This document shows positions 1 to 10,449 of a stretch of DNA of 64,000 nt, piece after piece. A model generated the notes under the pieces. That model made no database searches and had not been told where the DNA came from. It worked only from the letters and a program-made list of their open reading frames with translations. A program made the translations under genes and the position numbers. The stretch's first letter is position 1, and the number at the start of each line of letters is the position of its first letter. This DNA is from Polynucleobacter sp. MWH-Berg-3C6 (GTDB lineage Bacteria > Pseudomonadota > Gammaproteobacteria > Burkholderiales > Burkholderiaceae): the NCBI RefSeq assembly GCF_018881855.1, contig NZ_JACVPN010000002.1:124001-188000 (forward strand). Direction: 5' to 3'.

Positions 1-2
1 AA

Positions 3-47
3 GGCACCAAGGATCAAAAATCTTTACAACAAGCCTTCGACAAATAA
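3..47 (+). CDS. C-terminal end of a protein cut by the window edge (tentative)
   Basis: Frame 3 reads as 14 hydrophilic codons (GTKDQKSLQQAFDK) followed by TAA at 45-47. A factor-independent terminator overlaps the stop, which supports a real gene end here. Too little is visible to name the product. The other two frames run on to later stops and fit the terminator less well. Confidence 0.3.
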   Translation, partial: GTKDQKSLQQAFDK

Positions 48-63
48 TTTAGGAAGGCTTTTT
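31..63 (+). terminator. Rho-independent terminator of the gene entering from the left
   Basis: AAGCCTTC (31-38) pairs with GAAGGCTT (53-60) across a 14-base loop, and the right arm runs into five T (59-63). It overlaps the end of the partial reading frame that stops at 47. Confidence 0.6.
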
Positions 64-90
64 AGCACTTATTAATCATGCTGCTAATGT

Positions 91-120
91 AAAAATGCCA
101 ACCTAAGGGTTGGCATTTTT
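91..120. terminator. Perfect hairpin terminator, probably bidirectional
   Basis: A 13-bp perfect stem (91-103 with 108-120, core ATGCCAACC/GGTTGGCAT) closes a TAAG loop. It is flanked by A and T runs, so it could stop transcription from either side. It lies just left of the decayed tRNA copy, as another hairpin (7783-7812) lies just left of the intact tRNA. Confidence 0.65.
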
Positions 121-125
121 ATTTC

Positions 126-213
126 TGGTGGGCACACCAGGACTTAGGCCTAGGACCAAAGGATTGGGAGAGAAAAGCTTCCAACTAGACCCCTAAGGCA
201 AGAGGCTACGGGC
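126..213 (-). pseudogene. Decayed copy of the CAT-anticodon tRNA, or att-like remnant
   Basis: Positions 125-166 match the 3' part of the intact tRNA gene at 7818-7859 in the same orientation, with 37 of 42 bases identical by eye. The match includes the CCA end and the variable arm. The rest aligns only in scraps, such as CCAACT near 181 and a GAGGCTACGGGC block at 202-213 resembling the tRNA 5' end. The two acceptor strands no longer pair and the T-loop consensus is lost, so it cannot be a working tRNA. It could be a simple duplication or the far-end trace of an element that integrated at the tRNA 3' end. Confidence 0.6.
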
Positions 214-300
214 AGTCATTAGCGTTACATGGGTAAATGTGCAGTGGGCTTACACTTAGAAGTCACTGTAATCCATGACCACACTACTCAAAAGATCTTT

Positions 301-996
301 ATGCAATTACTGCCAACTCCTTTTCGCGCTCTAGTCATTGGCTCTTCCGGAACTATCGGAATGGCTTTTGTAGATCTGCTGAAAAAGAATCCTGCCTGCT
401 CAGAGGTAATAGGCATTCATCGTCAATCAGAGTTCCCAATTGACTATCAACATTTTGAATCCATTGAATCTAGTGCTAATGCGCTTGCTCAGATGGCACC
501 TTTTCAACTGATTATCAATGCCGTTGGGGTTTTGCATACGAGCAACTGGATGCCAGAAAAGAGGCTAGATGATCTCAATGCCGAACAACTGATGGAGCTT
601 ATGAGCATTAATGCCATTGGTCCGGCGCTAACCATTCGTCATTTCTCCAAATTACTGGATCCCAAAAATAGCATTATGGTGACCCTATCAGCTAAAGTTG
701 GCAGCATTGAAGATAACCGTCTTGGCGGGTGGTACAGCTATCGCAGCTCAAAGGCAGCTCTGAATATGCTTTTGAAAACGGCATCTATCGAGTGGGCTCG
801 CACAAAACCGAATACTGCCTTAATCGCAATGCATCCTGGCACAGTGAACTCTAGACTCTCCAAACCCTTTCGTGGAGAGCAAATTGGCAGGCCTGCAGAC
901 CAAGCGGTAACCGATATGTTTAAGGTAATTGAAAATCTCCAGAAAGAAGATTCAGGAAGCTTTATATCGTATTCAGGTGAAAAGCTACCTTGGTAA
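301..996 (+). CDS. SDR family oxidoreductase, CsgA/C-factor-like
   Basis: This is a short-chain dehydrogenase/reductase of 231 aa, expected to be a cytosolic NAD(P)-dependent enzyme. The cofactor loop GSSGTIG is at residues 14-20, NAVG near 73-76, the catalytic Ser at 130 and the YxxxK pair at Y147/K151. The open frame extends upstream to 229, but the Rossmann fold starts at residue 9 of the ATG at 301 and the extra 24 residues look non-coding, so 301 is preferred. No strong ribosome binding site is visible before either start. CsgA-like SDRs often sit in light- or oxidative-stress gene groups in proteobacteria, but the substrate cannot be read from sequence. Confidence 0.8.
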   Translation: MQLLPTPFRALVIGSSGTIGMAFVDLLKKNPACSEVIGIHRQSEFPIDYQHFESIESSANALAQMAPFQLIINAVGVLHTSNWMPEKRLDDLNAEQLMELMSINAIGPALTIRHFSKLLDPKNSIMVTLSAKVGSIEDNRLGGWYSYRSSKAALNMLLKTASIEWARTKPNTALIAMHPGTVNSRLSKPFRGEQIGRPADQAVTDMFKVIENLQKEDSGSFISYSGEKLPW

Positions 997-1007
997 CAAA
1001 CTGATCG

Positions 1008-2402
1008 CTAATTGATATGAATCACTTGGTTTTTATATCGTCCTGCTAGCGCTTTTTTAACGATCTTATAGATATCTAAATCAAATTCGACATCACCGGT
1101 GCTTTTCAGTTCAGATAACTCATCTGCGTTAATAGCAGTCCCTAGGTAGCACCACTTATCCAGGACAATCATTTCGCCACCATCATCAATCGCAATTGGA
1201 CCCTCATAAGGCCAAACTTGCACCTTATACAGATTCATTGCAGTTTGAAGCTGCAGGTTATACATCTTGGCAGACATGGCGCCAATACATGCTCCGCTAC
1301 ATTGCTTTAACTGATATCCAAAACAGGGCTTTCCTTCTGCGCCCTTTTCTAGCCCCAACAGCACTTCGCATAAGCGATACTTTTTAGCAACTGCTTTGAG
1401 ATAAGAGTGCGCCTCTCTTTTGCTATAAAACAGGCCATATAAGTTATCTTGAAGGCCAGGTAGCAAATCTTTCTGATTAACTAGTGCTGGCACTAGCATT
1501 CCTGCAGAGTTTTGTTCTAGACTCCAGGCACACAGATCCTTAGAGCGACGAAGCTTGATATTCATACTGGGCATGCGCTCTTTAATGAGCTGAGACTCCA
1601 GAATTAAGGCTCCCAGCTCGCCACTGGTTTCTATCCAGTCAATGTCCCTGACCTGTAAAGAGAGTTTCATTTCTTTGCGCTGTGTAAGCGAACCCTGAAA
1701 ATGGCCCATCACCCTGCTTCGCAAAGAAATACTTTTTCCAATATACAAAGGGCTCTTGTTTTCGCCATAAAAAATATAGCAGCCTGGCGCATCTGGGATT
1801 GAGTCAATCAATTCCTGATCAATATTGGACGGCAAGCTTGCATTACCAATTAATTGATTGACGGCTTCAACTAATCGCTCTCTACCAACTGTTTTTTCAC
1901 ATACTTGCCAAAATTGAAGTAATAAATCAGCATCGCCAAGCGCCCTATGCCTTGCACTGACAACTAGGTCATGAGACTGAATAATGGTATCGAGGCTATG
2001 ACGCGCTTGATTCGGAAACAATAATCTTGATAGTTTTACTGTACATAAGACCTTGGGCTTGAAATCAATTCCAAGCCTTTTGAGAGATGCTTTGATGAAG
2101 CCATAATCAAATCTTGCGTTATGCGCTACAAAGATTTTACCTTCGAGCTCTTCTTTAATTTCTCTAGCAAGCTCCTCAAAAGTCGGCTGACCAGCTACCA
2201 TTTTCGGGGATATGCCAGTTAGCCTTTGGATATTTTGAGGAATGTAGACCTGGGGATTAATTAATCTTTCCCAAACGCTAATCTGATTATCTGCAAGCGT
2301 TTTAATCCCAATCTCAGTAATACGATCCCGCTCGAAATGGGATCCTGTAGTTTCAATATCAACAAAAGCAAGCTTGGGATATTGAATGGTTTGCTGATTC
2401 AT
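1008..2402 (-). CDS. DEDDh 3'-5' exonuclease fused to a GIY-YIG (Cho/UvrC-like) nuclease
   Basis: This 464-aa protein joins two nuclease domains. Residues 10-165 form a DnaQ-type exonuclease: D15 and E17 in FVDIETTG, D99 in HNARFD, and H152/D157 in HRALGDAD. Residues 203-300 form a GIY-YIG endonuclease with GCYIFYG and PLYIGKS (207-223) and a following Arg. A UvrC/Cho-like segment with CFGYQLKQCSGAC follows, a Cys-rich patch found in that family. Cho makes an extra 3' incision in nucleotide excision repair, so a nick-and-resect repair role is plausible. It is convergent with the SDR, with an 11-base gap. Such fusions are known in several bacterial groups, but the substrate here is unproven. 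Confidence 0.85.
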   Translation of the reverse strand: MNQQTIQYPKLAFVDIETTGSHFERDRITEIGIKTLADNQISVWERLINPQVYIPQNIQRLTGISPKMVAGQPTFEELAREIKEELEGKIFVAHNARFDYGFIKASLKRLGIDFKPKVLCTVKLSRLLFPNQARHSLDTIIQSHDLVVSARHRALGDADLLLQFWQVCEKTVGRERLVEAVNQLIGNASLPSNIDQELIDSIPDAPGCYIFYGENKSPLYIGKSISLRSRVMGHFQGSLTQRKEMKLSLQVRDIDWIETSGELGALILESQLIKERMPSMNIKLRRSKDLCAWSLEQNSAGMLVPALVNQKDLLPGLQDNLYGLFYSKREAHSYLKAVAKKYRLCEVLLGLEKGAEGKPCFGYQLKQCSGACIGAMSAKMYNLQLQTAMNLYKVQVWPYEGPIAIDDGGEMIVLDKWCYLGTAINADELSELKSTGDVEFDLDIYKIVKKALAGRYKNQVIHIN

Positions 2403-2467
2403 AAAAATTCAATATTGATGAGCAATCAGGCCGGCTACGTGGGCACAATTGCAATCATTGCCTGATT

Positions 2468-3037
2468 TTAGCTAGGGTTACGATGCAAGTAGTTAGCAAA
2501 GTCAAATACGGAGTTAGGCCCACGTGGAACTTCCGCTACTTTCTTAAATTCAGCCTTCACAACATACTGAATCTCGCCTCGTTGTTTCTTCTCTTTCTTT
2601 GGATCCAAGGGAATATATGACTTACGTTCTGGTGCTTTTTTAGCCTCACTAAAACTTGGAACATAATCTTTAATGGTCGATGCAAGGGATACGTTTTCCA
2701 TGCAACTCAACATATAAGCTTCAAGAGACTGATAAAGATCTTTAGCAATATCCGATAGCTCAACCTTGCGCTTTTTGATTAAATTCATTGCAAGCACGAT
2801 GTCTTTAATGGTGATGATGCGAGGGTCTTTAGAGAGTTGATAACCGCCTGTTCGCCCCTTCACCGCAAAGACGATCCCAGACTCCCTCAAGGGGCGTAAT
2901 AGGAGCTCAATACGGCTAATGGACAAATGCTGCCTCTTGGCTATCTCAGGGACCGGCACAAGCTGACCATTGCCTGAATGACTAGCTATATCAACCAAGG
3001 TATTGAGTGCTGTTTTGACTGCTTTTGTAATTTCCAT
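2468..3037 (-). CDS. Rrf2-family transcriptional regulator
   Basis: The first 85 residues of this 189-aa protein form an Rrf2/BadM winged helix, with IAKRQHLSISRIELLLRPLR as the recognition region and a VKGRTGGYQLS wing. IscR-type members bind an iron-sulfur cluster through three cysteines. Here the sensor region has only one visible Cys (in YMLSCMEN), so an IscR-like cluster is unlikely. The C-terminal 70 residues are Lys/Glu-rich and unlike IscR. It is divergent from the membrane protein starting at 3073 with only 35 bases between, so it may regulate that gene and itself. Confidence 0.8.
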   Translation of the reverse strand: MEITKAVKTALNTLVDIASHSGNGQLVPVPEIAKRQHLSISRIELLLRPLRESGIVFAVKGRTGGYQLSKDPRIITIKDIVLAMNLIKKRKVELSDIAKDLYQSLEAYMLSCMENVSLASTIKDYVPSFSEAKKAPERKSYIPLDPKKEKKQRGEIQYVVKAEFKKVAEVPRGPNSVFDFANYLHRNPS

Positions 3038-3072
3038 GGCTCTTTTAGCGAAAAAATTAGATTGGGACTAGT

Positions 3073-3633
3073 ATGAAACCGAATCCAATATCTTGCTGCA
3101 GCGCACTACTTAACCCTCTTTATCACATGGTTGAAGCCACCCAAACTCACCACCCCCTTGCGTATCGACTACTTAGGCTAATCGCCTACCTTTTGGCAGG
3201 CGGCATTCTCGCGCAAGCCTTCAGTTGTGGTCTTATCTATTTTTTAATTTATGACTCTCAAGCGGCAGGCATGCTAGCCCACATGATGATTCAACATCTC
3301 TCTTATTTTTTCTTAGGAGGCATATTTGTCATTATAAGCGTTTCCAATATTCTCATTAAAAGGGGTGTATCCCATTTAAGAGTGATCCGCTTTCCATCGC
3401 TCACTGTATTTTTAGCAATTGCTACTACAAGCTTTCTACTGATACCCCGTATGGATTACTTACGAGAAACTGCCCTAATAGATGGTATGCCAGTCTTACT
3501 CTCTCCTTTTGCAAATTACTTTGCAATACTCAATGCGATTACGCTGCTACTACTGACTACCCAGATTATTTTTAGTGCCATCATAGCGTGGCGCTTAAGC
3601 GATACTCAATTAACCCAAGTGGCGTCTAACTGA
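3073..3633 (+). CDS. Multi-pass membrane protein of unknown function (possibly DUF4149-like)
   Basis: This 186-aa protein has about four hydrophobic segments, near residues 36-56, 73-93, 108-125 and 147-172. An IPRMDYLRE stretch between the third and fourth loosely resembles the DUF4149 pattern; that family link is a guess. The last segment ends in a short polar tail. It is divergent from the Rrf2 regulator, and its 3' end overlaps the convergent DUF2244 gene by 24 bases. No enzymatic motif is visible. Confidence 0.65.
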   Translation: MKPNPISCCSALLNPLYHMVEATQTHHPLAYRLLRLIAYLLAGGILAQAFSCGLIYFLIYDSQAAGMLAHMMIQHLSYFFLGGIFVIISVSNILIKRGVSHLRVIRFPSLTVFLAIATTSFLLIPRMDYLRETALIDGMPVLLSPFANYFAILNAITLLLLTTQIIFSAIIAWRLSDTQLTQVASN

Positions 3634-4038
3634 AGCAATCAATGGAATCTGTTGTTCAGGCCTGACAAACTGTCCAAGCTCAACTCGTAAATCAGATTGA
3701 GCAATAAAGAAGGTTTTTGAACCCTCAATGGGCGGCTCGATCTTCGCCCATTGGGCATTAAATTCATAAACCTTTTCTCTATAGCCTATGAATTTTTTGA
3801 CCAAAAGACGCTTGCCTTCAATTTCAATCGTTTCACAATCTAAGGCATGTCTACAGTAGATTAAAAATCCAATGGTTACTGCGGTTAATTCCAGAGTTGT
3901 GAAAATCGGAATCATCCAGACTCCAGCTAAAAAGAAGCCTACCCCCACTATTAAGGAGAGACATACTAGGGCAATATAAAACTGGAGCAGTTGCTTCGGT
4001 GTCAGCGCACAGTTTCTACGCATTTGCCAAGTCTTCAT
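3610..4038 (-). CDS. DUF2244 membrane protein
   Basis: This 142-aa protein matches the DUF2244 pattern: an N-terminal RRNCALTPKQL signature, two adjacent membrane segments (about residues 20-40 and 44-62), then CRHALDCETIEIEG and a soluble beta-rich tail. The family is common in alpha- and beta-proteobacteria, often beside cytochrome oxidase genes, which are absent here. Its function is not established. Its 3' end overlaps the convergent gene ending at 3633. Confidence 0.75.
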   Translation of the reverse strand: MKTWQMRRNCALTPKQLLQFYIALVCLSLIVGVGFFLAGVWMIPIFTTLELTAVTIGFLIYCRHALDCETIEIEGKRLLVKKFIGYREKVYEFNAQWAKIEPPIEGSKTFFIAQSDLRVELGQFVRPEQQIPLIASVRRHLG

Positions 4039-4060
4039 GCCAAACCCGTTTACCTATAAA

Positions 4061-4210
4061 TTAATGAGTGCTTTTGCGCTCTTGGGATTTGGCCAACTGA
4101 TCAGCACTTCTTTGCTGGAAATCGACCATACTGTGATAACCCATTTGGTAGCAAGGGCAATGTTTCCCTAGAATCCAGCGAGCAAGCTTCACACGAAATT
4201 TTTGAATCAT
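4061..4210 (-). CDS. Small 49-aa basic protein with a CPC motif
   Basis: A short frame starts at ATG 4210 with a clear AGGAG six bases upstream and ends in TAA at 4061. The product is basic and begins MIQKFRVKLARWILGKHCPC, followed by YQMGYHSMVDFQQR. The N-terminal 16 residues could form an amphipathic or membrane-surface helix. The CPC pair with nearby His residues could bind metal. It lies 22 bases upstream of the DUF2244 gene on the same strand, so the two may be co-transcribed. I do not recognise a family; the strong ribosome binding site and gene-like composition are the support. Confidence 0.6.
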   Translation of the reverse strand: MIQKFRVKLARWILGKHCPCYQMGYHSMVDFQQRSADQLAKSQERKSTH

Positions 4211-4341
4211 TTACATCTCCTAGTATTGAGCTTTAAATGTAAACGCAAATGGGGTTTGGTGCTGGCCGAAAGCATAAAAGTGGGGCATTTAGCACTGATT
4301 TGGTGTCAGCAAAGATGGGATAAATCCATTACATTGAATAC

Positions 4342-4986
4342 ATGACTAATTCGACCTCCATCACTCGTAAATTGCCTTTATTCCCACTGGGTACCGTACT
4401 TTTTCCAGATGGCGTTATCGCTCTCAAGATTTTTGAAGCACGCTATCTCGACATGATTAAGCAATGCCTACGTGAAAAGACAGAATTTGGCATCGTGAGC
4501 ATCATTAAAAATACCGACACTAGTGATGAAGACATTTCTCAATCATTTTCCAAGATCGGCACGCTAGCTCAAATTGAGGATTTTGACCCTGTTCAGCCAG
4601 CACTTTATATGACCAAGTCATTTGGTACGCAGCGCTTTAAGCTATTAAGCTCCAGTCAGGAAGCTAGCGGTCTTTGGATCGGCGAAGTCGAGCTTTTGGA
4701 AAACGATCCACTCATGCCCATTCCGCAAGAACATCAAGGCGTGGCTAAATTACTCGATCAAATTATTTCCGTCATTCAAAGTGAAGATTTATTAGGAGAG
4801 GCGCCTTTTAAGAAGCCCTTTAAGGTAGATGATTGTGGATGGGTATCCAATCGCCTAGCAGAGCTACTACCGATCTCTCTTGCCCAAAAAAATCATTTGC
4901 TAGCCCAAACCAATCCGCGCATTAGACTGGATCTGATTACTGAAATTATCGAAGATGACGATTTAAGAAATCTTATGATGCATTGA
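4342..4986 (+). CDS. LON substrate-binding domain protein (no protease domain)
   Basis: This 214-aa protein consists of the Lon N-terminal (PUA-like) domain alone. It opens with KLPLFPLGTVLFPDGVIALK and EARYLDMI, the typical start of the domain, and lacks the AAA+ ATPase and Ser-Lys protease parts of Lon. Stand-alone LON-domain proteins are widespread in proteobacteria with unclear roles, presumed to be binding or adaptor functions. It is followed after four bases by the MpaB-like gene, so the two are probably one transcript. Confidence 0.8.
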   Translation: MTNSTSITRKLPLFPLGTVLFPDGVIALKIFEARYLDMIKQCLREKTEFGIVSIIKNTDTSDEDISQSFSKIGTLAQIEDFDPVQPALYMTKSFGTQRFKLLSSSQEASGLWIGEVELLENDPLMPIPQEHQGVAKLLDQIISVIQSEDLLGEAPFKKPFKVDDCGWVSNRLAELLPISLAQKNHLLAQTNPRIRLDLITEIIEDDDLRNLMMH

Positions 4987-4990
4987 AGCC

Positions 4991-5851
4991 ATGCTTGATG
5001 AGTTGATCCGTAAAACAATTCGAGAAATGGTTGGGGGCAGCGGTCCACCAGTTGCCTTCTTAACTCCACCAGGAGATCGAGGATTATTCGGCCCTGAGTC
5101 AGTTGCCTGGAAAATTCATGCAGATTTTATTTCCATGATGATTGGCGGCATAAGTTCGCTGATTTTGCAGGCCTTACACCCACAAGCTTTAGCTGGGGTA
5201 TGGGATCACTCCACTTTCAGAGAAGATCTAAAGGGTCGCCTTGGTAGAACTGCGTTTTTTATTGCGGCAACGACCTACGGCCCCACTGAGATGGCAAATA
5301 ACATCATCACTAAGGTCAATCAGATTCATACCAAAATCACCGGCTTCGATGAATTTGGTAAACCGTATTCAGCTACAGATCCTCATTTGCTTGCTTGGGT
5401 CCATCTCACGGAGACGCGCAGCTTCATCAACTCATTTGAAGACTATCGCAAAGAAACAATCAGCCCAAAAGAGAAAGATCAATATTTTTTAGAGATGAGC
5501 TCCCTAGGAGAAAGAATGGGTGCTACGAACCTTCCAAGCACTTATGCCGCTACCGAGAAAGCCATTCAAGCTTATATACCAGAGCTCTATTTTGGGGAGC
5601 GTGCTAAGAGCATTATTGATTTACTTGACAACTTCCCGAGCAATTTAACAGCCAAGCCATTTATCAAACTCATTAGTCGTGCCGGTTTTCTCAATCTTCC
5701 CGACTGGGCATACCCGATGATTGGTAAGTCCACGCCAAGTTACTTTGAGCGCATGGCAGTCAAAAAAAGTATTGATTTAATTGCAATCCCGGTGCGTGAG
5801 GCTCTTAAAAATGGGGTGGCCGCCCACTCCTTACGGAGAGTTTACGGATAA
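4991..5851 (+). CDS. MpaB-like (DUF2236) oxygenase family protein
   Basis: This 286-aa protein belongs to the DUF2236 family, which includes rubber oxygenase Lcp and fungal MpaB. Visible marks are PQALAGVWDHSTFREDLKGR, the RTAFFIAATTYG segment (about residues 83-94), and DPHLLAWVHLTETRSF (about 130-145), a helix whose His is a candidate heme ligand. Family members are heme-binding, so an oxidative role on a lipid-like substrate is possible but not shown. It starts four bases after the LON-domain gene. Confidence 0.75.
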   Translation: MLDELIRKTIREMVGGSGPPVAFLTPPGDRGLFGPESVAWKIHADFISMMIGGISSLILQALHPQALAGVWDHSTFREDLKGRLGRTAFFIAATTYGPTEMANNIITKVNQIHTKITGFDEFGKPYSATDPHLLAWVHLTETRSFINSFEDYRKETISPKEKDQYFLEMSSLGERMGATNLPSTYAATEKAIQAYIPELYFGERAKSIIDLLDNFPSNLTAKPFIKLISRAGFLNLPDWAYPMIGKSTPSYFERMAVKKSIDLIAIPVREALKNGVAAHSLRRVYG

Positions 5852-5930
5852 GCTTGAGAAATTAATCGGCTCTCGAAGTAATTTTCATTTGCAGAAGATT
5901 TAGCCAAGAAAGCCTGGCTGAGAGCAAAGA

Positions 5931-6110
5931 CTAAGACTCAGGCTTAGTTTTGTCAGGATCTTGCTCTACATTCTTGAGGACGCTTGGCTTTAAATTTAAA
6001 GCAGGTGCCGCCATTTTTTCACCATCCCAAACTTGGCCGCACCAACACTCACCAGCATCATTAATGATGCAGACACCAGATCCACAGCAGCGTTTATCTG
6101 GGGATTTCAT
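5931..6110 (-). CDS. Small 59-aa cysteine-rich protein (RCCGSG motif)
   Basis: A frame from ATG 6110 to TAG 5931 encodes a protein with five cysteines in its first 24 residues: RCCGSGVC (7-14) and ECWCGQVW (21-28). The rest is a polar tail. This spacing suggests a zinc or iron-sulfur site, and the opening loosely resembles the CCGSG-type oxidoreductase-like motif. The ribosome binding site is weak (AAGGGC before the start). It lies between the convergent MpaB-like gene and the divergent AlkB-like gene. The dense, ordered cysteines support a real gene. Confidence 0.6.
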   Translation of the reverse strand: MKSPDKRCCGSGVCIINDAGECWCGQVWDGEKMAAPALNLKPSVLKNVEQDPDKTKPES

Positions 6111-6194
6111 AATTAAGCCCTTATCAATTCAAGATTGGATATTAAGGCTATTCTAGAGTTTTTATTGATTCAGTGTTGACCTATCATTTGCATC

Positions 6195-6827
6195 ATGAAG
6201 CAAACCTCTTTATTTGAAACAATTCCATCCCAATATAGGCAAAACTATTTACCTAAGGATGGGTCTGCTTACTACCATGCAGAATGGATGAGTGGGCCAG
6301 ATAGCGCTAACTTGATGAATCAACTCAAGAATTCACTGCAATGGGAAGCAGATCAGCTATTCATGTTCGGCAAGCAAGTGGTTACACGCCGTCAAGTGGC
6401 TTGGGTTGGAGATGCAAACTGCACTTATACCTACTCTGGCGTCAAAAAACATGCTCAGCCGTGGATTCCAGAGTTACTAGCAGTGAAAGCGCAAATGGAG
6501 AAGCTTGCCCAAGCAGAATTTAATTCCTGCTTACTTAATCTTTATCATGATGGAAAAGATGGAATGGGTTGGCACAGCGATAATGAAAAAGAGTTAGACG
6601 CGAACAGCCCCATTGCCTCGCTAAGTCTTGGTGCCACCCGCAAATTCGCATTTAGACACAAGACTGATAAAACAACCATCTCCCTGCCCTTAGAAAATGG
6701 TAGCGCCCTTGTGATGAATGCACCAACTCAGCAATTTTGGCAGCATGCCTTGCTCAAAACAACAGCCATTCACACAGCTCGTATTAATTTAACTTTTAGA
6801 AAAATTAATCATCACTATGACAACTAA
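6195..6827 (+). CDS. alkB: AlkB-like 2-oxoglutarate/Fe(II) dioxygenase
   Basis: This 210-aa protein has the full AlkB active-site set: HxD as H127/D129 in GWHSDNEKELD, the second iron-binding His at 184, and the 2-oxoglutarate-binding RINLTFR with R196 and R202. AlkB proteins reverse alkylation damage such as 1-methyladenine and 3-methylcytosine in DNA or RNA by oxidative demethylation. The length and the YTYSG region fit the ALKBH2/3-like bacterial group. The last 11 bases overlap the FolB-like gene, so translation of the two is probably coupled. The gene symbol is by family; the substrate range is not known. Confidence 0.85.
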   Translation: MKQTSLFETIPSQYRQNYLPKDGSAYYHAEWMSGPDSANLMNQLKNSLQWEADQLFMFGKQVVTRRQVAWVGDANCTYTYSGVKKHAQPWIPELLAVKAQMEKLAQAEFNSCLLNLYHDGKDGMGWHSDNEKELDANSPIASLSLGATRKFAFRHKTDKTTISLPLENGSALVMNAPTQQFWQHALLKTTAIHTARINLTFRKINHHYDN

Positions 6828-7218
6828 CGCATGTATTGAACTAAAAGATCTTAAGCTCCAGACACAAATTGGAACCTATGGACCCGGCGCAATCATTCCC
6901 AAGCAACACTTATTGGATTTAACCCTGTGGATTGACGAAAAACTCGTCTTAATTACAAAAGATGTCATGGAGAGTGTGTTTGACTATGACCCATTAGTCG
7001 TCGACATCAACCGAATTGCAGGTGATGGCCACTATGAAACTCAAGAAAGACTCATGACCCGTATCATTCAGGCTTGCTCACAATATCCTGAAATTCAATC
7101 TCTTGAAATCAACCTCAGAAAATCACCAGTCAGCGCGGGCTCTGGCTCACTCGGCGTCAGACTCTCAGTGAATCAAACTACTTTGAATAATTTAAGAGCC
7201 TCTAAGCTTTCATCGTAA
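6817..7218 (+). CDS. Dihydroneopterin aldolase-like (FolB/FolX family) protein
   Basis: This 133-aa protein follows the FolB fold pattern: IELKDLKLQTQIGTYG, LDLTLWID, FDYDPLVVDIN, ETQERLMTRI, and the INLRKSP strand carrying the usual active-site Lys (K102). The glutamate normally found in the IGxxxxE loop is replaced by a GPGAIIPKQ sequence. It may therefore be a divergent paralogue acting on a different pterin. It overlaps the AlkB-like gene by 11 bases. A true folB elsewhere on the chromosome would support a specialised role. Confidence 0.65.
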   Translation: MTTNACIELKDLKLQTQIGTYGPGAIIPKQHLLDLTLWIDEKLVLITKDVMESVFDYDPLVVDINRIAGDGHYETQERLMTRIIQACSQYPEIQSLEINLRKSPVSAGSGSLGVRLSVNQTTLNNLRASKLSS

Positions 7219-7305
7219 ATAAGCCCTAATGAGACTCAAAATATCATCGTAGAGCTGCCTAAGCGTTTTAAAGAATTTCATCAATCATGATTTTAAGGGC
7301 CGGTT

Positions 7306-7704
7306 TTACTGGCTATCCCTTAATGCGATTAGTAAAGGGTGGTCCTTCGGAAACTCCACATCTTCAATTGCAGCGCTAACTTCTGGCAGGGTTTCAGCCA
7401 TCTCTTCACTTCCCTGAAACACCATTGTCCACTTACTAAAGCTTCGCTCACTGATTTGTTTTGACTCTATTAAGTGAACATTTTTATGGCGGTCATCCTT
7501 TTGGATTTTTTGCCACAAGGCATTGATATCCTTTTCGAGCCCCTCAATAACTTGCCCAAACTTATTGTTCTCATAAATAAGCGCGCCAGTAATCCCTAAG
7601 GCCTGGTTATTAGAATAGGAGTGGTATAAGAGCCTCATCAAGCCCAAGAACGACATATTTTGAGCTGGCTCACTCACATAAGTTAGTTCAATTAGCTGAG
7701 ACAT
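7306..7704 (-). CDS. Single-domain BLUF blue-light photoreceptor
   Basis: This 132-aa protein is essentially one BLUF domain, which binds FAD and senses blue light. The key residues are present: Tyr9 in ELTYVS, Asn32/33 before GITGALIY, Gln51 in FGQVIEG, DDRH near 70-73, and Trp92/Met94 in FSKWTMVF. No output domain is attached; only about 35 residues follow the core. Short BLUF proteins act through partner proteins. No Shine-Dalgarno sequence precedes the ATG at 7704. The neighbours are a FolB-like gene and a tRNA. Confidence 0.9.
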   Translation of the reverse strand: MSQLIELTYVSEPAQNMSFLGLMRLLYHSYSNNQALGITGALIYENNKFGQVIEGLEKDINALWQKIQKDDRHKNVHLIESKQISERSFSKWTMVFQGSEEMAETLPEVSAAIEDVEFPKDHPLLIALRDSQ

Positions 7705-7782
7705 GAACTAATAATAGAGATACCCCATGTCAATTGCTCTAGGCGTTTACCCGCGCGTCCGATCAAGCAAGCCCCAAATGAC

Positions 7783-7812
7783 AAAACCCTCACCATTTCT
7801 GATGAGGGTTTT
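7783..7812. terminator. Hairpin terminator downstream of the tRNA
   Basis: AAAACCCTCA (7783-7792) pairs with TGAGGGTTTT (7803-7812) over a 10-base loop. The minus-strand reading ends in T bases and lies seven bases beyond the tRNA 3' end, so it probably ends the rpoD-tRNA transcript. The plus-strand reading runs into TTTTCTTTT. Confidence 0.65.
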
Positions 7813-7818
7813 CTTTTC

Positions 7819-7895
7819 TGGTGGGCCCACCAGGACTTGAACCTGGGACCAAAGGATTATGAGTCCTCTGCTCTAACCAACTGAGCTATGGGCCC
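7819..7895 (-). tRNA. tRNA with CAT anticodon, probably tRNA-Ile2
   Basis: A complete 77-nt cloverleaf with encoded CCA. The acceptor is GGGCCCA/TGGGCCC, the D stem GCTC/GAGC, the anticodon stem GAGGA/TCCTT around CTCATAA, and the T stem CCAGG/CCTGG around TTCAAGT. A CAT anticodon could mean Met or lysidine-modified Ile2. The C4-G69 and C5-G68 pairs and the Ile2-like anticodon and variable region favour Ile2 over elongator Met. It starts 13 bases after the rpoD stop on the same strand and is probably cut from that transcript. Confidence 0.92.
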
Positions 7896-7908
7896 GCTAA
7901 TCCTTCGA

Positions 7909-10449
7909 TCAATCCTCCTCAAGGAAGGTCTTGAGTTTGTCGCTGCGGCTTGGATGACGCATCTTTCTCAAGGCTTTGGCTTCAATCTGACGAATACGCT
8001 CACGTGTTACGTCAAACTGTTTACCCACTTCTTCGAGAGTATGGTCTGTGCTCATTTCAACACCAAAGCGCATGCGCAGTACTTTTGCTTCACGTGGTGT
8101 TAATGAGTCCAGAACATCTTTAACAACGTCACGCATCGATTCATGTAAGGCTGCTTCAGCTGGGGCCAAGGTATTGCCGTCTTCAATGAAATCACCTAAA
8201 TGAGAATCTTCATCGTCACCGATTGGCGTCTCCATGGAGATTGGCTCTTTAGCAATCTTCATGATCTTACGAATCTTATCCTCCGGAATCTCCATCTTCA
8301 GCGCCAAAGTTGCAGCATCTGGCTCATGACCAGTTTCTTGCAAGATCTGACGGCTGATACGGTTCATCTTGTTGATCGTCTCAATCATATGAACTGGAAT
8401 ACGGATCGTACGTGCTTGGTCAGCAATAGAACGGGTAATTGCCTGACGGATCCACCAAGTTGCATAGGTAGAGAACTTATAGCCACGACGGTATTCAAAC
8501 TTATCTACCGCCTTCATCAAACCGATATTGCCTTCTTGAATCAAATCCAAGAACTGCAAACCACGGTTGGTGTATTTCTTGGCAATAGAGATTACTAGGC
8601 GCAAGTTGGCTACAGTCATCTCGCGCTTTGCCTCGCGGGCACGCTTCTCGCCAGCGATCATCTGCTTATTGACTTCTTTTAACTCAGGCAACGGAATGAC
8701 GACATTCTTCTGAATATCGATCAATTTCTGCTGAAGTTCCTGAATCGCAGGTACGTTACGTTGCAAAAGCGCGCTATATGGCTTGTTCTCTTTGAGTAAC
8801 TTATCAGTCCAAGTCAAATTCATGGACATCTTAGGAAACTCTTTTAATACTTCACCACGATTAACGCCAACTTTGTCTACCAATAAGCTCACGATACCGC
8901 GCTCAAGCTTCCATACTTGGTCAACTTGGGAACGCATGGTGTCGCATAACTTCTCAACACTTTTCGCGGTTAAGCGGAAACCGAGTAACTCGCCACGAAT
9001 CAGATCTTGTGCCTTGATATACGCTGGGCAGTTATAGCCGTCTTTATCAAAGGCACGGCGCATTTTGTCGGCTTGGGTACGAACAATGGCAAATTTCTCG
9101 AGAGAGATTTGTTTTAGTTCTTCAAGCTGCTTCGCATTCGCTGTTGCAGCACCACCACCGCCACCACCTTCATCTTCACCTTCTTCATCACCCTCTTCTG
9201 CATCGGGATCAATCTCTGGCTCATCAGGGCCCAACTTAATATCTTCTGCGTTTGGATCTACTAAACCATCCACAAACTGGTCGATCTCCATCTCGCCACT
9301 AGCAATCTTGTCTACGTTAGCAAGAATTTCAGCGATAGTGACTGGGCAAGCAGCCAAGGCCATCACCATATCCTTGAGACCCGCTTCAATCTTCTTCGCA
9401 ATAACGATCTCGCCTTCGCGAGTCAGCAAATCTACAGTACCCATCTCACGCATATACATGCGGACTGGATCGGTAGTACGACCGAATTCTGAATCAACCG
9501 TAGAAAGTGCTGCTTCAGCCTCTTCCTCAGCCTCTTCTTCTGAAGCTGCTGCGGCAGTGTTGTCAGACAGAATTAGTGTCTCTGCATCTGGCGCCTGCTC
9601 ATAAACAGTAATACCAATGTCATTTAACAAGCTGATCAAGGTTTCTAATGCATCAGCATCAGATAACTCATCAGACATGACGTCATTCATCTCGCCATGG
9701 GTCAAGTAACCCTTAGACATACCCATCTTGATCAAGGTCTTCAAGCGCGCACGACGTAATTCTTGTTGCTCTTCAGTACCTAATTGCTGAGCAGCAAACT
9801 CTTTTAAGAGCGCCTTCTCTTTTGCTTTGCGCTCACGTGCTTTTTGACGATCCGTTAAGACTGGCTCAGCGCCATCAGCAGGAACTTCAGCCTTGGCCTT
9901 GCGACCACGCTTTTTCTCTTCCTCAACCACTGGAGCAGCAACTTCAACTACCTTCGCTTTTTTGCCTTTGATCTCTTCTACTTTTGGTGCCGCTGTCGCT
10001 TTACCTTTTTTTGGTGGCTCAACCTTAACTGTTTTTGCAGGAGCAGACTTTGCAGCAACTTTCACTGGCTTTGCTGCTGCCTTAGTTGGAGTCTTAACTG
10101 GAGCCTTAACTGGTTTAGCAACTACCTTTTTCGCTACTGGTTTTGCAACAGCCTTAGATGCTGATTTAGGTGCTGATTTAGGCGCTGGTTTAGCAGCCTT
10201 CACGGGTTTGGCTGCTACTTTTTTAGCTACTGGTTTAGTAACAGCCTTTTTTGCAACCGGTTTAACTGGAGTCTTTGCTTTAGGCGCTGGTTTAGCAGCC
10301 TTCACTGGTTTGGCGACTTTTTTTGCAACAGGCTTCGCTGGGGCTTTAGGTTTGGTCTTCACCACTGGTTTAGCTAGGGCTTTCGCTTTGGACTTAGCTG
10401 CTGGTTTACTTGCTGGCTTAGCTGGTTTTTTGATCTTAGTATTAGGCAT
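7909..10449 (-). CDS. rpoD: RNA polymerase primary sigma factor RpoD with a long Lys/Ala/Pro-rich N-terminal extension
   Basis: This 846-aa housekeeping sigma factor directs RNA polymerase to most promoters. E. coli RpoD is 613 aa; the excess is mainly an extension of about 225 residues before region 1.1 (which begins near [18 protein letters not shown], 226 onward). Residues 1-150 are repeats of [17 protein letters not shown] and similar. A KKRGRKAK stretch near 179-186 resembles an AT-hook core. The non-conserved region has an acidic, Gly-rich loop. Region 1.2 ([11 protein letters not shown]), region 2 ([20 protein letters not shown]) and region 4 ([20 protein letters not shown]) are intact. 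It is the last protein gene of the macromolecular-synthesis operon. Confidence 0.97.
9998..10445 (-). repeat. Low-complexity degenerate repeat encoding the RpoD Lys/Ala/Pro tail
   Basis: The DNA is built from degenerate units of about 30-60 bases coding for AKPVAKK and [11 protein letters not shown] blocks, for example around 10190-10220 and 10275-10310. Such repeats are prone to slippage, so the length may vary between strains. The same bias leaves the opposite strand open over this stretch, which is not a gene. Confidence 0.7.

What the first reader, a model, noticed from the sequence alone, without database searches (positions are those of the whole stretch)
126..7895. A 7.7-kb segment bracketed by a tRNA 3' end and its decayed copy
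Positions 125-166 match 7818-7859 (3' part of the CAT-anticodon tRNA) with about 37 of 42 bases identical, in the same orientation. tRNA 3' ends are classic integrase sites, and the tRNA's 3' end faces the segment. The genes between look accessory (BLUF, AlkB-like, nuclease fusion, MpaB-like). No integrase is present, so this may be a stripped old island or just a tRNA duplication.
Basis: partly seen in the sequence, partly recalled or inferred. Interest (0 to 1): 0.6.

Follow-up and report, generated by a model that had tools for sequence, protein, structure and literature searches.

The report
Island scar beside an often-invaded tRNA
The damaged tRNA piece is a scar left by a mobile island that inserts into this tRNA gene, but the genes it brackets look like old residents; in sister species such islands bring a spare tRNA gene that often carries a group I intron exactly where the islands insert.

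Summary
The repeat is real: 36 of 42 bases, next best in the window 25 of 42. It is a decayed attachment junction, not a bare tRNA duplication: its inner flank (183-254) is the only match in the window to a profile of element-end arms built from relatives without their tRNA part (E 8e-4). The tRNA-CAT beside rpoD is an integration hotspot in Polynucleobacter.

The 7.7-kb interior is probably not that island. Most of its genes lie in the same order beside this tRNA in G052 without the copy, and the copy is younger than the G052 split. Island-derived DNA lies on the outer side of the copy: about 4.7 kb with serine hydrolase, GGT and asparaginase, absent from the nearest relative.

In relatives, elements cut the tRNA at CTCATAA in the anticodon loop and carry a complete spare tRNA 161-219 nt inside the junction. 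The spare usually has a group I intron in that same loop: 22 of 28 complete copies away from rpoD, against 1 of 24 beside it. That the intron shields the site is inferred, with one counter-example.

The parts
1..48 (+). 3' end of an asparaginase gene, last gene of the island-derived module that extends left of the window (G000:C23 about 119560-124242)
   Evidence: ORF L006:436-1488; PF00710 and PF17763; module absent from G050
96..115 (.). hairpin with T run between asparaginase gene and tRNA copy
   Evidence: read by eye; the 75-base unit hairpin plus 3' half recurs in relatives; not listed by the terminator scan
116..165 (-). decayed copy of the tRNA 3' half (anticodon loop to 3' end)
   Evidence: 43 of 50 identical to 7809-7858; E 5.6e-10 in the whole genome
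166..254 (-). decayed element-end arm adjoining the 3' half on the inner side
   Evidence: only profile hit in the window, 183-254, E 8e-4; alignment
229..7704 (.). resident block: SDR (real start probably 301), exonuclease/GIY-YIG, Rrf2, membrane protein, DUF2244, Lon-N, MpaB, AlkB, FolB, BLUF
   Evidence: Pfam; most of it in the same order beside the tRNA in G052
7783..7812 (.). hairpin with T run downstream of the tRNA
   Evidence: read by eye
7819..7895 (-). tRNA with CAT anticodon, intact and intronless; attachment site of the element family; probably tRNA-Ile2
   Evidence: ARAGORN Met(CAT); RF00005 75.1 bits
7909..10449 (-). rpoD, 13 bases upstream of the tRNA on the same strand
   Evidence: ORF; same neighbour in relatives

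Best explanation
The tRNA-CAT gene beside rpoD is the attachment site of integrative elements in Polynucleobacter. A recombinase exchanges strands at CTCATAA in the anticodon loop, which leaves displaced tRNA 3' halves with their hairpins at the far end of each element. Window 96-254 is one such junction, decayed: hairpin and 3' half on the outer side, element arm on the inner side. Shown by sequence: the junction anatomy, the hotspot, and that most of the 7.7-kb block stood beside this tRNA before the junction formed. Inferred: the element's interior was lost, and the junction came to lie between the cupin and SDR genes by a rearrangement or by import of a piece of a tRNA array from another strain. 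The island-derived DNA in this genome is the roughly 4.7 kb left of the copy, bounded on its far side by another partial tRNA 3' end.
For: Repeat beyond chance. Arm profile from nine junctions of six relatives, tRNA part left out, hits the window once, next to the copy. Copies of the 3' half cluster beside this tRNA in relatives. Most block genes in order beside the tRNA in G052, and no 3'-half copy left of the block in the fetched stretches of G002, G004, G013, G024, G026, G033, G038 and G052. Copy divergence 7 of 50 (95% interval 0.06-0.27; at most 0.33 corrected) against 0.43 or more per lineage since the G052 split at four-fold sites. G050 has cupin and SDR separated only by a short spacer where G000 has about 4.68 kb more. 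G012 carries GGT and asparaginase between two tRNA 3' pieces.
Against: The arm hit is weak (15.1 bits; E 0.009 when searched with the 17 relative stretches). How a junction came to lie on the far side of the block is unexplained. The age test assumes neutral decay and no gene conversion with the intact tRNA, and is undecided against G050 (corrected per-lineage 0.22-0.33, overlapping). The block itself has changed place in the genus, so its own arrival at this tRNA may have used the hotspot. The left bounding tRNA piece in G000 is short (33 bases, 85%).
Confidence: 0.68

Rival explanations
1. The 7.7-kb block is the cargo of an old island that entered through this tRNA; recombinase and ends were stripped, and the copy is its left boundary.
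For: The arm faces the block. The block is missing from some genomes (exonuclease found in 39 of 61, AlkB in 29 of 61) and lies elsewhere in G012, G018 and G031.
Against: The copy is younger than the G052 split, yet G052 already has most of the block beside the tRNA. Block genes diverge between G000 and G050 about as much as or more than the genes left of it (four-fold 0.40-0.48 against 0.34-0.36), so it is not a newcomer in G000. No recombinase inside.
Confidence: 0.17
2. A plain duplication of the tRNA 3' half without any integration.
For: No integrase near; only half the tRNA is copied.
Against: Element arm beside the copy; dozens of equivalent copies in arrays at the same tRNA in relatives, several with the same kind of arm.
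Confidence: 0.05
3. The module and junction are ancestral to G000 and G050, and G050 lost them by deletion.
For: G050's short cupin-SDR spacer can be aligned loosely with part of the arm; the age interval of the copy overlaps the G050 split.
Against: G052 and G013 show no arm there either; the point estimate of the copy's age (0.155) is below the G050 per-lineage values (0.24-0.33). The alignment of the spacer is not significant: the profile finds nothing in it.
Confidence: 0.3
4. For the wider system: the intron in the spare tRNAs is a mere hitch-hiker, and its place at the crossover is coincidence, since both group I introns and tyrosine integrases favour anticodon loops.
For: Group I introns are known in the anticodon region of bacterial tRNAs (PMC4090602, passage). 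Spare tRNAs without intron exist (G014, G020); an intron-bearing 3' half without 5' half exists (G059).
Against: Strong skew of introns to copies away from rpoD (22 of 28 against 1 of 24), although related elements are counted more than once.
Confidence: 0.6

Closest known systems
tRNA-gene genomic islands (Islander, PMC4383910; abstract and passages seen)
   Same: tRNA gene as target, displaced 3' fragment in the same orientation, anticodon-loop crossover as one of the common sub-sites.
   Different: Here no integrase lies between fragment and tRNA, and the DNA between is resident; that database filters for an integrase.
tRNA-dependent lysogeny of actinobacteriophages (PMC10865867; abstract and passages seen)
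   Same: Short common core (about 10 bp there, CTCATAA here), host tRNA not rebuilt, element carries a tRNA of the same kind; tRNA-Ile2-CAT is among the targets.
   Different: In Polynucleobacter the elements that I looked into (G026, G010) are cargo islands, and the spare tRNA usually has a group I intron. In that paper 'intron' occurs once, in a reference title.
Introns as guard or cargo of tRNA att sites in archaea (Randau and Soll 2008 as told in PMC4090602; Sugahara et al. 2012 as told in PMC8371274; passages seen)
   Same: Intron placed in the attB part of a tRNA; mobile element proposed as vector of the intron.
   Different: Those are archaeal, protein-spliced introns; here a bacterial group I ribozyme family (RF00028).
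Group I intron of bacterial tRNA-Ile(CAU), Azoarcus type (recalled; such introns are mentioned in PMC4090602)
   Same: RF00028 match and place in the anticodon loop.
   Different: Here mostly in tRNA copies away from rpoD, behind element ends.
Tycheposons of Methylophilaceae and Prochlorococcus (PMC10872708, abstract and passages seen)
   Same: Cargo island at a tRNA(cat) with a tyrosine recombinase in a freshwater betaproteobacterium.
   Different: Shared recombinase or replication genes not tested; 'intron' has 0 occurrences in that text.

Membership tests
tRNA-gene genomic island (applied to window 126-7818) | tRNA gene plus displaced fragment in the same orientation | tested here: met
   36 of 42, same strand
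tRNA-gene genomic island (applied to window 126-7818) | integrase gene between fragment and tRNA | tested here: not met
   Pfam on the ten ORF products; no PF00589 match on contig C23
tRNA-gene genomic island (applied to window 126-7818) | DNA between is foreign and absent from close relatives | tested here: not met
   most of it in the same order in G052, and in G050 on two short contigs
integrative-element attachment junction (applied to window 96-254) | tRNA 3' half joined to an element arm | tested here: met
   profile hit at 183-254, weak at 15.1 bits
tRNA-dependent integration (relatives) | short common core, host tRNA left broken | tested here: met
   18 of 42 rpoD-linked 5' halves end at CTCATAA and run into non-tRNA sequence
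tRNA-dependent integration (relatives) | element carries a tRNA of the same kind | tested here: met
   complete copy 161-219 nt inside in 23 of 38 classed named loci; sole complete copy in G010, G016, G026, G032, G038
tRNA-dependent integration (relatives) | element-encoded tyrosine integrase acting at this site | tested here: inconclusive
   468-aa candidate in G026, 38% relative in G014, fragment in G012 among 17 fetched stretches; PF00589 17.3 bits, cut-off 27.1
tRNA-dependent integration (relatives) | spare tRNA needed for survival after integration | not testable with these tools
   needs mutants
group I intron | match to the RF00028 covariance model | tested here: met
   26 of 26 loci that I chose as intron-bearing match at E 0.001 or better, 20 at or above gathering; L041 58.3 bits
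group I intron | self-splicing | not testable with these tools
   needs RNA
tycheposon | family-specific recombinase and replication modules | not tested
   only the resemblance in tRNA and cargo was noted

The most novel reading that the evidence does not exclude
Polynucleobacter islands that break the tRNA at its anticodon loop bring a spare tRNA whose group I intron sits inside the crossover sequence (CTCAT-AA). The intron hides the spare from the island's own recombinase and from rival islands at the DNA level, while splicing restores the tRNA at the RNA level: a ribozyme used as a lock on an integration site. The anatomy is shown; the lock is inferred.
Probability: 0.3. Interest if true: 0.8.

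Novelty: new variant of a known kind. Interest (0 to 1): 0.55.

Why it matters
The window shows an ordinary thing clearly: a decayed island junction whose bracket does not enclose the island, a warning for methods that call islands from tRNA fragments alone. The wider locus is a natural series of integrations at one tRNA beside rpoD. Spare tRNAs with a group I intron exactly in the crossover sequence make a long-standing idea, that tRNA introns guard against integration, testable in culturable bacteria and in vitro.

Tried and rejected
A decayed group I intron beside the window copy was considered, because G012's homologous copy has one (read by eye). Rfam finds none in window 1-8000, and the flank matches element arms, so it was dropped. 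A decayed tRNA 5' half in the flank (alignment) was dropped for the same reason.

That the block is a recent island was tested by synteny and four-fold divergence and dropped. That an intron-bearing copy is never split was tested and is not absolute: G059:C3:18287 has intron and 3' half but no 5' half before CTCATA. The Fisher count (0 of 27 against 25 of 56) was made by hand from the classes and leaves that G059 case out, so it is not used as evidence.

A pattern for other CAT tRNAs first had wrong spacing and found nothing. With corrected spacing it found a second CAT tRNA at C25:210165, also called Met by ARAGORN; this fits an Ile2 identity of the window's tRNA but does not prove it. Two scans of the viral collection gave one contig and none. 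Of the paper searches, none of the held papers had 'Polynucleobacter' with 'group I intron' or all five terms on intron, island and anticodon loop; broader searches gave the reviews cited. Nothing outside that library was searched. The 2017 Polynucleobacter island paper is not held.
Full report
OBSERVATION. The window is G000:C23:124001-188000 of a 1.99-Mb genome in 28 contigs. Genomes of its genus group carry Polynucleobacter names in the named collection: contig lengths 305779, 470130 and 546633 of G013, G011 and G058 equal those of P. yangtzensis MWH-JaK3, P. sphagniphilus MWH-Weng1-1 and P. bastaniensis AP-Basta-1000A-D1. The tRNA at 7819-7895 is called Met(CAT) by ARAGORN. It is probably tRNA-Ile2: relatives carry in it a group I intron like that of Azoarcus tRNA-Ile(CAU) (recalled), and another CAT tRNA exists elsewhere in the genome.

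WHAT THE COPY IS. In relatives, pieces of the same tRNA 3' half cluster in the tens of kilobases beside this tRNA (both genus lists were cut off by the tool). Well-preserved junctions read, in tRNA sense: arm with repeated TTACACACC-like sites, CTCATAA, 3' half, hairpin. Of the 18 junctions printed there, I built a profile from nine (G002, G004, G010 twice, G014 twice, G038, G059 twice), leaving the tRNA part out; the others lacked a recognisable arm, carried an intron, or are G000 itself. In 64 kb on both strands the profile hits once, at 183-254, directly inside the copy (E 8e-4, 15.1 bits). Over 17 stretches of 15 genomes it hits 16 further places, eight of which are not the built-in nine or lie in other genomes (G012, G013, G033), and nothing in G018, G024, G026, G050 or G052 at E 0.1. 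The copy is therefore a decayed attachment junction with the element's interior to the right. Of 186 genus genomes searched with window 1-300, only G000 matched end to end (at most four candidates scored per genome); G012, G115 and G047 matched only the asparaginase-end, hairpin and 3'-half part.

THE SEGMENT IS RESIDENT. Pfam names nine of the ten ORF products (one membrane protein has no family); none is a recombinase. G052 has cupin, SDR, exonuclease/GIY-YIG, Rrf2, membrane protein, DUF2244, Lon-N, MpaB, FolB, then tRNA and rpoD, with no copy left of SDR; it lacks AlkB and BLUF and has 1.3 kb extra after SDR. G013 has the same order with AlkB, but its tRNA and rpoD end is on another contig. 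G050 shows the order on two short contigs, its tRNA on a third. G024, G033, G004, G038, G026 and G002 keep much of the block beside the tRNA with SDR, BLUF, cupin or DsbA shuffled (all). On a RpoD plus DnaG tree of 17 genomes, the nine with the exonuclease at the tRNA (one broken, G017) fall in one group of twelve with three that lack it (G014, G036, G060); that split has support 0.99, several inner nodes are weak. The copy differs from the tRNA at 7 of 50 sites (95% interval 0.06-0.27, corrected at most 0.33), less than expected since the G052 split (0.43 or more per lineage at four-fold sites); against G050 (0.22-0.33) the test is undecided.

OLDER MOBILITY OF THE BLOCK. The exonuclease gene was found in 39 of 61 genomes and the AlkB gene in 29 of 61. 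In G012, G018 and G031 the exonuclease lies between clpB and moeA, 7.8 kb apart, about 200 kb from the tRNA; the G012 stretch was read and holds exonuclease to AlkB without SDR, FolB or BLUF. Of 20 genomes asked, six (G000, G010, G014, G024, G036, G050) have clpB and moeA about 1.1 kb apart, with no room for the block; the rest have 2.3-6.1 kb or are not linked, contents not examined. So the block has changed place in the genus, by an unknown route.

WHERE THE ISLAND DNA IS. Left of the copy G000 has about 4.68 kb (119560-124242) that G050 lacks: a partial tRNA 3' end (119596-119628, 85% over 33 bases), a PF00144 serine hydrolase, a gamma-glutamyltranspeptidase (PF01019) and an asparaginase (PF00710, PF17763), then hairpin and copy. 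G012 has GGT and asparaginase between two tRNA 3' pieces, 83% and 81% identical in DNA.

HOW THE ELEMENTS WORK IN RELATIVES. I searched 61 genomes for the tRNA 5' half; 52 had one within 3 mismatches. I classified 83 loci; one further hit, G031:C1:594648, was not fetched. Directly beside rpoD: 23 complete without intron (one, G053, partly N), 18 ending at CTCATAA, 1 complete with intron (G023). Not directly beside rpoD: 22 complete with intron, 6 complete without (G014, G020, G029, G045, G055, G057), 11 others, of which seven end at CTCATAA and four (G001, G019, G029, G049) are divergent intron copies with RF00028 scores of 30-33 bits, below gathering. Two more intronless copies (G006, G027) follow a short repeat of the rpoD end. 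Fisher test for intron, 1 of 24 against 22 of 28, p 2.8e-8; with the two short-repeat copies, 22 of 30, p 1.7e-7. The loci are related, so this overstates the evidence. In the named collection an exact pattern for the intron junction found 39 stretches, of which 38 could be classed: 23 with a cut 5' half 161-219 nt upstream, 13 in other contexts, 1 beside rpoD (L171, a MAG labelled Rhodocyclaceae), 1 too short to tell. This sample overlaps the 61 genomes.

INTRON. RF00028 matched 26 of 26 loci that I chose as intron-bearing, 20 at or above gathering; the six below are 47.9, 49.6 (G010) and four at 30-33 bits. P9-like stems change on both sides between genomes (read by eye; no covariation test was run). 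In G010, G016, G026, G032 and G038 (one contig each) the only two 5' halves within 3 mismatches are the cut one and the intron-bearing one, so the intron copy is probably the working gene. The intron lies between T and A of CTCAT-AA, inside the crossover sequence; that it blocks recombination is inference. Against it: G023 and L171 have the intron in the rpoD-linked gene; the G014 and G020 spares have none; G059:C3:18287 has intron and 3' half but no 5' half, as if an intron-bearing copy had been entered or broken at CTCATA. A hitch-hiking intron explains the data too. An IMG/VR fragment (L146) also carries an intron-bearing copy.

RECOMBINASE. A 468-aa protein in the G026 element has a 38% identical relative in the G014 element and a 58-aa fragment in G012, among the 17 fetched stretches. 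Its match to PF00589 is weak, 17.3 bits against a cut-off of 27.1. A 190-aa PF00589 protein stands in the same two elements. The G010 element had no PF00589 match. Which enzyme acts at this site is open.

KNOWN OR NEW. Element-borne tRNAs that replace a broken host tRNA are known from phages (PMC10865867, abstract and passages), and introns as guard of attB or as cargo of attP have been proposed in archaea (PMC4090602, PMC8371274, passages). My searches of the held library found no paper joining a bacterial group I intron with such elements (listings only, except for the papers named). The companion Polynucleobacter paper PMC5644125, seen in passages, has no 'tRNA' in its text.

VERDICT. The window is a modest example; the hotspot around it is the interesting part.

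Noticed in passing
L146 (IMG/VR contig, 5359 bases), about 400-665: A phage-like fragment with tRNA-Gly, -Ser and -Leu genes also carries a copy of this tRNA with the group I intron.
   Followed up: partly
L076, L090, L114 (G001, G019, G049): A divergent group I intron with another 5' junction (ACTTAAC) in the same tRNA; RF00028 32-33 bits, below gathering.
   Followed up: partly
L079/L080 (G006) and L093/L094 (G027): A second, intronless tRNA preceded by a repeat of only the last 18 or so codons of rpoD, about 6 kb from the cut rpoD-linked copy; the repeat seems to reach into rpoD.
   Followed up: no
L081, L090, L091, L103, L109, L112, L118, L123: Upstream of some tRNA copies a conserved stretch with CAATTACAATG, perhaps a promoter, next to what may be an antitoxin-like gene (by eye).
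   Followed up: no
window 1008-2402: RNase T-type exonuclease fused to a GIY-YIG domain; broken by a stop in G017 beside the tRNA.
   Followed up: partly
G012, G018, G031 between clpB and moeA: The same exonuclease block stands there; the clpB-moeA gap varies from 1.1 to 7.8 kb among genomes, so it may be a second variable site.
   Followed up: partly
L066/L067 (G026:C1:1737485-1762905): Element with metal-efflux-like genes, a PF00589 protein, a divergent integrase-like protein and an AAA_15 ATPase that may be a defence gene (cargo names by eye).
   Followed up: partly
L038-L040 (G010:C1:1585661-1607777): Element with TRAP-type and ABC transporter-like genes and a nitrilase-like gene, by eye; no PF00589 match inside.
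   Followed up: no
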